A DNA stretch of 64,000 nucleotides from Nitrososphaerota archaeon (GTDB lineage Archaea; Thermoproteota; Nitrososphaeria; Nitrososphaerales; Nitrosopumilaceae): contig JAGWFS010000002.1 of the NCBI GenBank assembly GCA_028867785.1, forward strand, positions 178,678-242,677, given 5' to 3'. Position numbers and translations under genes: made by a program. Positions 24,344-27,121 of the stretch are shown one piece after another (positions within the stretch are counted from its first letter, which is position 1; each line of letters opens with the position of its first letter). The notes under the pieces are model-generated. The model was not told the origin of the DNA. It saw nothing but the letters and a program-made list of their open reading frames with translations, and ran no database searches.

Positions 24344-24850
24344 TTGGGATTGAGTCAAGACAATCTAAAAAAACACAATAGCGTCAGATCAAAATTTAAA
24401 ACTTTTGTATGTTTCAGCAAAAATGATGAGGAAAAAGCACATATTTTGGAATCTGCGCTTGCGGAAAAAGGATTCGGTACATATCTAGTAGATGTTGAAT
24501 CTCATGATAGTTTCCTTTCATCTGAACTCAAAGACATGATCCGTTCATCTGTCTGTTTTATTGCTATTCTTACCTCGAAACTTCTTGTTTCGAGTCTGTT
24601 TAATCAAGAAATAGGCTATGCTCAAGGTAAGGGATTACGCGTTATTCTGGTTGTCAACACCAGTCTAAAAAATGATGTTCAGAACATCAAGACAAAACTA
24701 TCTATAATAGAATTTAATGAAAATGATTTCAAACAATCTTGTCTTTTGGTTACTGATAAAGTATCAAAGATAACAGAAATTCTGGACGAACCAATTGATT
24801 TTGAATCATTTCTTGATTTCTATACTGAGAGTAAAACAAAACCTGGATAG
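24344..24850 (+). CDS. TIR-like domain protein
   Basis: A 168-residue protein with TTG start. KTFVCFSKNDEEKAHILESALAEKGFGTYL is the first strand, BB-loop region and helix of a TIR/TIR_2 fold. ELKDMIRSSVCFIAILTSKLL follows, then SLFNQEIGYAQGKGLRVILVV, where E89 falls at the place of the catalytic Glu of NAD-cleaving TIR domains. There is no sensor or effector domain besides a short C-terminal tail. The gene is visibly richer in A+T than its neighbours (AAT, AAA, TCT-rich codons), a sign of possible transfer. TIR proteins can act in antiviral NAD depletion or signalling; here there is no partner gene. Confidence 0.65.
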   Translation: MGLSQDNLKKHNSVRSKFKTFVCFSKNDEEKAHILESALAEKGFGTYLVDVESHDSFLSSELKDMIRSSVCFIAILTSKLLVSSLFNQEIGYAQGKGLRVILVVNTSLKNDVQNIKTKLSIIEFNENDFKQSCLLVTDKVSKITEILDEPIDFESFLDFYTESKTKPG

Positions 24851-24994
24851 TTCTGAATCTCTGAAGATTCGTAAAAAAACTGTAGAAATCTGTGAACAAG
24901 ATGGTTCGCAAATCTGCTCGTAATGGTATGTCTCGAAAAATTTTGGATTCAAAATGTGCGATATTCGGATCTTCTTTTTGCCTAACTGTTAGAG

Positions 24995-25002
24995 TTATAA
25001 AG
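24995..25002 (+). promoter_or_regulatory. TATA box of the fluoride-riboswitch transcript
   Basis: TTATAAAG lies about 25 bases before 25020-25024, exactly where the riboswitch aptamer begins. The transcript therefore probably starts at the 5' edge of the RNA, unlike the leaderless neighbours. Confidence 0.6.
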
Positions 25003-25023
25003 GCGTAGTGAAAGAAATTATGT

Positions 25024-25090
25024 GGCTATGGCATTAGCCTTGGGACAAAATTCCTAAACCGCCCCAGAAGGAGCTGATAATGTCTACCTA
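25024..25090 (+). ncRNA. Fluoride (crcB) riboswitch aptamer
   Basis: The sequence matches the crcB RNA core: GGCT (25024-25027) and AGCC (25036-25039) form the pseudoknot pair around ATGGCATT, whose GGCATT (25030-25035) pairs with AATGTC (25079-25084) as stem P1. AAACC then GCCCC/GGAGC (25061-25065 with 25070-25074) is the inner hairpin, followed by the conserved CTGAT. The same ATGGCATT, AAACCGC and AGCTGAT blocks occur in the well-known Pseudomonas syringae fluoride riboswitch (from memory). An extra small hairpin (GGGA, loop, TTCC at 25042-25054) is inserted between the pseudoknot strand and AAACC. It binds fluoride with Mg ions. Confidence 0.9.
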
Positions 25091-25111
25091 ATGAAAAATT
25101 AAGAGGTAGAC
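25082..25111 (+). promoter_or_regulatory. Riboswitch expression platform, SD-sequestering hairpin
   Basis: GTCTACCT (25082-25089) and AGGTAGAC (25104-25111) form a perfect 8-bp stem. The right arm contains the Shine-Dalgarno GAGGT (25103-25107), six bases before the ATG at 25114. The left arm uses GTC, also the 3' strand of aptamer stem P1. The two folds exclude each other, so fluoride binding should free the ribosome-binding site and turn translation on. Confidence 0.75.
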
Positions 25112-25113
25112 AA

Positions 25114-26649
25114 ATGAACAAAAATAAAAAAAAACCAAGTTGCAGAATGACTTCATGCACAACAGTCAAGGCTTTCTCCATATTACCTCAAGTCAAAAGC
25201 AAAAAGATCTTTGAAGAATATCTCACCTATGGTATGATCATTTTCATATTGTCTAGTTTGTATCTAGTGCACAGCCCTGCCTTTGCACAGTATTACGATA
25301 AGACCCCCGAATTTACGCAGACAGAATCTAACAGCCAGCTGGTCGTAGGAAAAGCAGTTTCTTCGGATGGCTCTGTTCATGTTACATTGATATCTACGCC
25401 AATAGAACCAGATCAGCCTCTTGCTCTCCAAATATCCTTTACAGACCCACAGGGAAGGTTGATACCGTACGAAAATTATGGCATAAGGGCTCAACAGATA
25501 GAAGGTAATGGCGCGTGGATACTTTCAAACGAGTCTGCGCTCGCAGCTGATGGAAAAGATATTCAGGTTACAAGTGATTTGCAAAACGTAAGCCCCGTTA
25601 ACTTTCAAATCCAGCTGCAAGGATCAGGTGCTCCAGATACTAGTATATCGGAGTGGACAGGGCCAAACGAGATAGTAAGCATAACAATTGGCAATCAATA
25701 TAGCGCACATACGGCAGTGTCACAAGCTCCTTCTGGTACATCACAAGTTGTTACAATCCCATATGGTGCGTACAATCCGCAATTTGACACCTCGGCCCCA
25801 TCTTGGTATGCACCGTCCACTGTGACTATATCTGTGAATCAGAGTGTAACTTGGATAAATCAAGATAAGGAGATCCATACTGTAACAAGCGGTCACTCTT
25901 CAGGCAGAGCAAGTCTTCTTGGAAATAGCGTTGGGCAACCAAATGGTCTTTTTGACAGTGGCAACATCCTCATTGGCAAATCTTGGACCCACAAGTTCAC
26001 GACGACTGGAACATTCGAGTATTACTGTAGCTTGCACCCATGGATGCAGGGTTACGTGATAGTAAAGCCAACAGAATCTGTTCCTGTTGATGCATATGGG
26101 AACGAGATTACAAAATTTCCAGTCGTACGACTCACCCCTGACAGGGCATACGAGGTAGATCTCGATTGGGAGCCACATTACATTACAACTGGGAAACAAA
26201 TTGTGTTCATATATCAGGTCTACGACAACATCAAGTACGAAGCAATTCCGGCTCACTATGTATTTACAATTATACAAAATGGACAACAACTGTACAAAAT
26301 TGAAGACTCGACACAGTTTGGAGGGGCATACCAGTATTTTCGATTCGACAACACAGGGCCCGTGACCTTTGAATTTTCTGATATTGCACATACCGATCAA
26401 GATGTGCAGTATACTACTGTAGTAAATCCTGGCAACTCAACAGATACAAGTGATATGAATATGCCAATGGTTGAGCCTGCAAGAAACATGGATGTGAATT
26501 TCTGGCTAATGCCAATCTTCTTTGTGCCGGCTGGGGTGGCAGTTGCAGTCGTATATGCCAAGAAACGCATGAGGAATGCAGCAAAGACACATTTCCGTTC
26601 TTCTGACAGGCCCAATGATAAAACTTTAGCAAAAAAGACTCCGATATGA
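25114..26649 (+). CDS. Exported cupredoxin protein with C-terminal membrane anchor, under the fluoride riboswitch
   Basis: A 511-residue protein. ATG 25114 is supported by an SD (GAGGT) six bases before it. A signal segment lies near residues 35-57, after a positively charged leader. Residues about 60-200 form a beta domain with NxS sites. Residues about 215-315 are a plastocyanin-like domain: STVTISVNQSVTWINQDKEIHTVTSG and FEYYCSLHPWMQGYV give His, Cys, His and Met copper ligands. A further beta domain (residues 330-440) precedes a membrane segment (WLMPIFFVPAGVAVAVVYA) and basic tail. Its placement directly behind a fluoride riboswitch is unusual. The nearby crcB has its own likely promoter. 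Confidence 0.85.
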   Translation: MNKNKKKPSCRMTSCTTVKAFSILPQVKSKKIFEEYLTYGMIIFILSSLYLVHSPAFAQYYDKTPEFTQTESNSQLVVGKAVSSDGSVHVTLISTPIEPDQPLALQISFTDPQGRLIPYENYGIRAQQIEGNGAWILSNESALAADGKDIQVTSDLQNVSPVNFQIQLQGSGAPDTSISEWTGPNEIVSITIGNQYSAHTAVSQAPSGTSQVVTIPYGAYNPQFDTSAPSWYAPSTVTISVNQSVTWINQDKEIHTVTSGHSSGRASLLGNSVGQPNGLFDSGNILIGKSWTHKFTTTGTFEYYCSLHPWMQGYVIVKPTESVPVDAYGNEITKFPVVRLTPDRAYEVDLDWEPHYITTGKQIVFIYQVYDNIKYEAIPAHYVFTIIQNGQQLYKIEDSTQFGGAYQYFRFDNTGPVTFEFSDIAHTDQDVQYTTVVNPGNSTDTSDMNMPMVEPARNMDVNFWLMPIFFVPAGVAVAVVYAKKRMRNAAKTHFRSSDRPNDKTLAKKTPI

Positions 26650-26731
26650 AACTGAGCATGGAAGATTTTTCATATGGTACTGTGAAAACCAAAAATGTAG
26701 TTAATTTAAGTAACTGCTATACTAGTCAGGT

Positions 26732-27121
26732 ATGAAAATGATAGAGCTTGCTTTTCTTGCAGTAGGGGGAACGGCGGGAATTTTCCTAAGATATGGTATT
26801 ACAAAATCGCCGCTGCTGTTTGGAGCATTGCCTGTAAACATACTGATTGTAAACGTCATAGGAAGTTTCATTCTTGGCGCATTTGCAGTCGTTTCTCAGC
26901 AATGGAATCTGGATGAGAAATATGCACTGTTTGTAGCAATTGGGTTTTGTGGAGGGCTGACCACAATGTCCTCATTTGCGCTTGAAACCTCAAACATGAT
27001 TGATAACAAGCAATACCTGATGGTGGCAGTCAACGTTTTGACAAACGTGGGATTGTCACTTGGGGCAATATTTGGCGGCAGAGCTTTGACAGGCCTGATT
27101 TTGAGTGGAGGGTTTAGATGA
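26732..27121 (+). CDS. crcB: CrcB/Fluc fluoride channel
   Basis: A 129-residue protein with four membrane helices, standard for a dual-topology Fluc. Family blocks: GGTAGIFLRYGI at the N-terminus, NVIGSFILGAF, then GFCGGLTTMSSFALE (the GxxTTFSTF-type core, Na+ site and phenylalanine box), and a final GALFGG-like AIFGGRAL. It lets fluoride leave the cytoplasm. A TATA-like TTAATTTAAG about 26 bases before the ATG suggests a leaderless transcript separate from the riboswitch RNA. Overlaps the DUF190 gene by ATGA. Confidence 0.95.
   Translation: MKMIELAFLAVGGTAGIFLRYGITKSPLLFGALPVNILIVNVIGSFILGAFAVVSQQWNLDEKYALFVAIGFCGGLTTMSSFALETSNMIDNKQYLMVAVNVLTNVGLSLGAIFGGRALTGLILSGGFR

What the first reader, a model, noticed from the sequence alone, without database searches (positions are those of the whole stretch)
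25024..25113. Fluoride riboswitch in front of an exported cupredoxin gene
The crcB-type aptamer is clear (pseudoknot GGCT/AGCC, P1 GGCATT/AATGTC, AAACCGCC, AGCTGAT). The first gene after it is an anchored cupredoxin protein, not a fluoride exporter. The channel gene crcB follows 1.6 kb later and appears to have its own promoter. So fluoride may directly control a copper protein at the cell surface.
Basis: partly seen in the sequence, partly recalled or inferred. Interest (0 to 1): 0.85.

Follow-up and report, generated by a model that had tools for sequence, protein, structure and literature searches.

The report
Fluoride riboswitch controlling a copper protein
In an acid-soil ammonia-oxidising archaeon, an RNA fluoride sensor sits directly on the start site of a gene for a surface-anchored blue-copper protein, while the nearby fluoride-channel gene has its own conserved promoter, so sensing fluoride probably turns on the copper protein itself.

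Summary
Rfam finds one fluoride aptamer in the window and in the whole genome (RF01734, 40.9 bits, cut-off 34). The aptamer is fused to a 9-bp hairpin (25081-25089/25104-25112) that hides the Shine-Dalgarno sequence and ends one base before the cupredoxin start codon. There is no U-tract terminator. Across 73 distinct archaeal leaders, pseudoknot, aptamer tail and SD arm covary as two mutually exclusive helices, so this looks like a translational ON switch. The genus is acidophilic Ca. Nitrosotalea. All 12 close cupredoxin orthologues found sit behind this riboswitch and, where testable (11), form one clade; 0 of 28 paralogue loci do. One genome has separate riboswitches for crcB and for the cupredoxin, so the cupredoxin is not just a passenger of the crcB operon. 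In nine genomes crcB has its own TATA box 26-27 nt before its start codon. Two relatives carry islands of 7-8 fluoride riboswitches before TFB, Hyf-like, ferredoxin, TIR and transporter genes. I found no earlier report of a cupredoxin under a fluoride riboswitch.

The parts
24995..25002 (+). TATA box TTATAAAG of the riboswitch-cupredoxin transcript, 29 nt before P1
   Evidence: sequence; TATA-like box about 28-34 nt before P1 in most same-genus leaders
25015..25093 (+). fluoride (crcB) riboswitch aptamer
   Evidence: RF01734, 40.9 bits, E 7e-8; R1 model 93.9 bits
25024..25039 (+). P1 hairpin GGCT/AGCC with loop ATGGCATT
   Evidence: Rfam alignment
25030..25035 (+). pseudoknot 5' strand GGCATT
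   Evidence: pairs with 25079-25084; covaries; G31-U83 wobble here
25079..25084 (+). pseudoknot 3' strand AATGTC, overlapping the SD hairpin by TGTC (25081-25084)
25081..25112 (+). expression platform: hairpin TGTCTACCT/AGGTAGACA sequestering the Shine-Dalgarno GAGGT (25103-25107)
   Evidence: dG -12.4 kcal/mol, falls to -4.6/-3.1 when the pseudoknot takes the 5' arm; conserved and covarying
25114..26649 (+). exported, membrane-anchored three-domain cupredoxin (511 aa); Cu ligands H255, C305, H308, M311
   Evidence: PF00127; ligand columns invariant in 13 homologues; helices 29-50 and 466-490, beta domains between
26705..26710 (+). TATA box TTTAAG of crcB, 27 nt before its ATG (leaderless promoter)
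   Evidence: conserved at 26-27 nt in 9 of 9 genomes
26732..27121 (+). crcB (Fluc) fluoride channel, 129 aa
   Evidence: PF02537, 83.1 bits; only copy in the genome
27118..27432 (+). DUF190 protein, 104 aa, overlapping crcB by 4 bases
   Evidence: PF02641, 76.1 bits

Best explanation
This is a translational ON-type fluoride riboswitch whose direct target is the cupredoxin. SHOWN from sequence: a TATA box lies 29 nt before P1, so the mRNA should begin at the aptamer. The aptamer tail (25081-25089) can pair either with the P1 loop (pseudoknot) or with the SD region (hairpin), not both, and both helices are conserved by covariation. The hairpin ends one base before the cupredoxin ATG, and no U-tract follows. 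INFERRED: without fluoride the SD hairpin forms and the cupredoxin is not translated; Mg-fluoride stabilises the pseudoknot, removes 4-5 nt from the hairpin's 5' arm and frees the SD. crcB-DUF190 is expressed from its own leaderless promoter, possibly also by read-through. INFERRED, weaker: the cupredoxin is a fluoride-induced paralogue of a constitutive AOA surface cupredoxin, used to keep copper electron transfer working under HF stress, which is severe for an acidophile.
For: Rfam hit above cut-off. SD hairpin: helix score over 99 leaders 18.2, against 10.4 +/- 0.2 after shuffling and 15.2 +/- 0.3 after permuting arms. Pseudoknot/tail/SD-arm states A-T-A 37, A-T-G 2, G-C-G 28, G-T-A 6; tail-arm Fisher p 3.5e-18. 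Energies. 12 of 12 close orthologues linked, 0 of 28 paralogue loci; linked rows form one clade, 100/99. G292 has separate riboswitches for crcB and cupredoxin. crcB TATA at 26-27 nt in 9/9. Genus Ca. Nitrosotalea from record titles; 29 of 37 genomes carry the switch. HF entry at low pH: PMC11139923.
Against: No fluoride binding, RNA-seq or proteomics. With only the pseudoknot held, the folding model still pairs the remaining 5 bp over the SD, so release is argued from the energy difference, not shown. The window's pseudoknot has a G-U wobble. Sequences are phylogenetically related, so the p value overstates independence. The conserved TATA box does not prove a promoter, and in split-gene relatives (G144, G087) crcB follows within 12 nt without one.
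Confidence: 0.78

Rival explanations
1. The cupredoxin is a passenger: the switch exists to control crcB-DUF190 as the distal genes of one operon, and the cupredoxin was inserted between them.
For: crcB follows the cupredoxin in 11 of the 12 loci. In G144 and G087 the gap is only about 12 nt. Many relatives have the riboswitch directly before crcB, or before a short leader ORF and crcB.
Against: In G292 the cupredoxin has its own fluoride riboswitch with no crcB behind it, and crcB has another elsewhere. crcB has its own conserved TATA box in nine genomes. The SD hairpin acts on the first ORF only.
Confidence: 0.15
2. The switch controls transcription (termination) rather than translation of the cupredoxin.
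For: The best-studied fluoride riboswitches are transcriptional (PMC13273304; PMC2864571).
Against: No U-run follows the hairpin; the next 25 nt are A-rich coding sequence, and no + strand terminator-like site is found. The hairpin covers the SD and abuts the ATG in most leaders.
Confidence: 0.07
3. The aptamer is a decayed relic that no longer responds to fluoride.
For: The window pseudoknot carries a G-U wobble (GGCATT/AATGTC), where most same-genus relatives have GACATT.
Against: It scores above the Rfam cut-off with all conserved loop bases, and a complete SD hairpin and TATA box are kept. The same G-T-A state occurs in five island leaders of G183 and G279.
Confidence: 0.05

Closest known systems
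Fluoride (crcB) riboswitch, RF01734
   Same: Aptamer architecture, conserved loop, 5'-UTR position, tail shared between pseudoknot and an alternative hairpin.
   Different: Archaeal leader with an SD-sequestering arm instead of a terminator; first gene is an exported cupredoxin, which is not among the associated genes named in the sources read (exporters, Na+/H+ antiporters, pyrophosphatase, enolase, formate hydrogenlyase, mutS and others).
AOA surface cupredoxin paralogues (~330 aa: cupredoxin + beta domain + C-terminal anchor)
   Same: Domains 2 and 3, Cu ligands and C-terminal anchor, about 35-45% identity.
   Different: Paralogues lack the N-terminal domain and have no riboswitch in 28 loci checked. 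The riboswitch-linked group is one clade with a fused or adjacent extra domain.
Nitrosopumilus maritimus purple cupredoxin (PDB 5fc9) and MCO C-terminal cupredoxin (9cck)
   Same: Best solved relatives of domain 2 by sequence and fold.
   Different: 5fc9 has R where this protein has the axial-type Met (HPWR against HPWM); neither has the flanking domains or anchor.
crcB-DUF190 fluoride-resistance operon
   Same: crcB and DUF190 overlap here and in many relatives.
   Different: Here the pair has its own conserved leaderless promoter and lies behind the cupredoxin.

Membership tests
Fluoride riboswitch RF01734 | covariance-model score at or above gathering threshold | tested here: met
   40.9 against 34 bits, full length
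Fluoride riboswitch RF01734 | P1 hairpin plus loop-tail pseudoknot | tested here: met
   GGCT/AGCC and GGCATT/AATGTC (one G-U); pseudoknot covariation A-T 39, G-C 28, G-T 6, A-C 0
Fluoride riboswitch RF01734 | lies in the 5' leader of a gene, with an expression platform sharing the tail | tested here: met
   SD hairpin and ATG at 25114
Fluoride riboswitch RF01734 | binds fluoride with Mg2+ | not testable with these tools
   needs in-line probing or SHAPE
Plastocyanin/azurin (Copper-bind, PF00127) | Pfam score above gathering threshold | tested here: met
   25.3 against 21.2 bits, residues 232-318
Plastocyanin/azurin (Copper-bind, PF00127) | type 1 Cu ligand set His-Cys-His-Met | tested here: met
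   H255, C305, H308, M311 invariant in 13 homologues
Amicyanin (TIGR02657 equivalog) | curated cut-off | tested here: not met
   30.6 against 110.2 bits
CrcB/Fluc (PF02537) | Pfam score above gathering threshold | tested here: met
   83.1 against 32.9 bits

The most novel reading that the evidence does not exclude
In acidophilic Nitrosotalea the fluoride riboswitch has become a genome-level regulon device. Promoter-riboswitch cassettes are placed before a surface cupredoxin and, in relatives with 7-8 copies, before general transcription factor TFB paralogues, a Hyf-like complex, Zn-ferredoxin, TIR, Lrp and MFS genes, so that fluoride remodels electron transport and, through TFB, transcription.
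Probability: 0.4. Interest if true: 0.8.

Novelty: new variant of a known kind. Interest (0 to 1): 0.62.

Why it matters
It links fluoride sensing to copper electron-transfer chemistry in ammonia-oxidising archaea and gives a concrete, conserved translational fluoride switch in archaea with a three-way covariation signature. Nitrosotalea lives in acid soil, where HF enters cells easily, so the link makes a physiological prediction: fluoride should induce a specific surface cupredoxin. One of the linked loci is in a record titled Candidatus Nitrosotalea sp. TS (L115).

Tried and rejected
Unknown 390-aa exported protein in the same slot as a cupredoxin homologue: rejected (no Pfam or NCBIfam hit; no profile similarity). 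Intrinsic terminator as platform: no + strand candidate. Additional weak riboswitches in the window genome: none. Pfam for domains 1 and 3: nothing at E up to 10. The anti-SD search by short pattern was uninformative. My first orientation of minus-strand loci was wrong and was redone. Baker et al. 2012 was not held.

Full report
OBSERVATION. The only Rfam match in the window is the fluoride riboswitch RF01734 at 25015-25093 (+), 40.9 bits against a gathering score of 34; it is also the only one in the 2.5-Mb genome. The next gene (25114-26649, 511 aa) has a plastocyanin/azurin domain; crcB (26732-27121) and a DUF190 gene follow.

SETTING. Relatives of the protein in titled public records come from Thaumarchaeota/Nitrosopumilaceae MAGs and from Candidatus Nitrosotalea sp. 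TS, so the genus is very probably the acidophilic ammonia oxidiser Nitrosotalea (inference from those titles and the shared genus label). With a model built from 32 archaeal leaders (R1), 29 of 37 genomes of the genus carry the riboswitch. [quoted passage not shown]

EXPRESSION PLATFORM. The aptamer tail TGTCTACCT (25081-25089) is perfectly complementary to AGGTAGACA (25104-25112), which contains most of the Shine-Dalgarno GAGGT (25103-25107) and ends one base before the ATG. Its 5' arm overlaps the pseudoknot strand by four bases, so the two helices exclude each other. Over 99 leaders the tail/downstream helix scores 18.2, against 10.4 +/- 0.2 with shuffled downstream sequence and 15.2 +/- 0.3 with arms permuted between leaders. 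One tail base covaries with both partners: pseudoknot/tail/SD-arm = A-T-A 37, A-T-G 2, G-C-G 28, G-T-A 6, with no mispaired class. The sequences are related, so the Fisher p of 3.5e-18 is only indicative. The hairpin is worth -12.4 kcal/mol and drops to -4.6 or -3.1 when the pseudoknot (and the following long-range A-U, recalled from the crystal structure) takes its arm. A simple fold with the pseudoknot held still leaves the SD paired in a short helix, so opening with fluoride is an inference. There is no U-run and no + strand terminator-like site. TATA-like boxes lie about 28-34 nt before P1 in most same-genus leaders, so the transcript should begin with the aptamer.

IS THE CUPREDOXIN REALLY THE TARGET? 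Orthologues at 53% identity or more, as fused proteins or as two adjacent ORFs, were found in 12 genomes: G000, G216, G258, G260, G261, G279, G292, G412, and split in G087, G144, G249, G415. All 12 have the riboswitch immediately upstream. The more distant ~330-aa paralogues (about 35-45% identity), widespread in the family, have none in 28 loci with upstream sequence (a 29th, L095, is truncated). Eleven riboswitch-linked rows form one clade with support 100/99, one change of state on the tree (G412 is broken into two overlapping ORFs and was not in the tree). In G292 no crcB follows the cupredoxin; its only crcB is on another contig behind its own fluoride riboswitch. crcB in the window has a TATA box (TTTAAG, 26705-26710) 27 nt before its ATG; the same box stands at 26-27 nt in nine of nine genomes compared, although the spacer between the genes ranges from about 80 to over 600 nt. 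This is the layout of a leaderless archaeal promoter. Relatives that lost the cupredoxin or the alternative 390-aa exported protein keep its start codon and first codons as a 23-48-aa leader ORF behind the switch, as expected if the switch acts on translation of whatever ORF comes first.

THE PROTEIN. It has an N-terminal membrane/signal helix, a beta domain, the cupredoxin domain with H255, C305, H308 and M311 invariant in 13 homologues, a second beta domain and a C-terminal membrane helix. In split relatives the N-terminal domain is a separate adjacent gene with a near-threshold PEFG-CTERM signal (23.1 against 25 bits). The best solved relatives are the N. maritimus purple cupredoxin 5fc9 and the C-terminal cupredoxin of an N. 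maritimus multicopper oxidase, 9cck. Domains 1 and 3 have no Pfam match.

WHAT IT IS FOR (inference). Fluoride inhibits a multicopper oxidase reversibly (CueO; PMC6117412), and the island genomes put other redox parts (Hyf-like complex, Zn-ferredoxin) behind fluoride riboswitches. The most economical idea is that the cupredoxin is a fluoride-induced electron carrier or copper-handling paralogue that keeps the copper-based surface electron transport working while HF is in the cell. I give this role about 0.35; a role as passenger or as general envelope-stress protein is possible.

NOVELTY. The aptamer is a normal family member. New, as far as the open library shows, are the target gene (no paper holds both 'fluoride riboswitch' and 'cupredoxin'; none with Thaumarchaeota), the covarying archaeal SD-sequestering platform, and the riboswitch islands. 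Most subscription papers could not be searched.

Noticed in passing
L031 and L032 (G183:C37:50000-89999): Seven fluoride riboswitches within about 19 kb, in front of a 191-aa protein, a TFB operon with a TIR gene, a Hyf/complex-I-like operon, a Zn-ferredoxin, an Lrp-like gene, a second TFB and the 390-aa exported protein before crcB.
   Followed up: partly
L033 and L034 (G279:C57:20000-59999): Eight fluoride riboswitches in front of the cupredoxin, a TFB, an HTH protein, a Hyf-like operon, DUF6659 and ferredoxin genes, a TIR protein, an MFS transporter and an Lrp-like regulator.
   Followed up: partly
window 24960-25020 and L032:1750-1820: The promoter region of the window's riboswitch is nearly identical by eye to that of the riboswitch before a TFB paralogue in G183, suggesting that promoter-riboswitch cassettes are shuffled between genes.
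   Followed up: partly
window 24344-24850: TIR-domain gene just upstream of the cassette is 60% identical to a TIR protein that stands behind a fluoride riboswitch in G279.
   Followed up: partly
L032:3414-4583 and seven other genomes: A 390-aa exported, C-terminally anchored protein without any family match occupies the cupredoxin's slot between riboswitch and crcB in eight genomes; unrelated to the cupredoxin.
   Followed up: partly
L092 3115-4621 (G412; same locus as L115, Ca. Nitrosotalea sp. TS): The cupredoxin gene is broken into two overlapping ORFs, by a frameshift or a sequencing error.
   Followed up: no
rows 10, 16, 35, 41, 47, 49, 59, 76, 85, 86, 90, 93: Many leaders with the CTTCTAC/CTCCTAC tail (mostly family f10) lack the tail hairpin and instead carry GCGAGCGG or similar before the start, complementary to the aptamer's CCGCTCG: apparently a second archaeal expression platform.
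   Followed up: no
L049 (G127:C55:140243-140481): Two fluoride riboswitches back to back on opposite strands, driving divergent genes.
   Followed up: no
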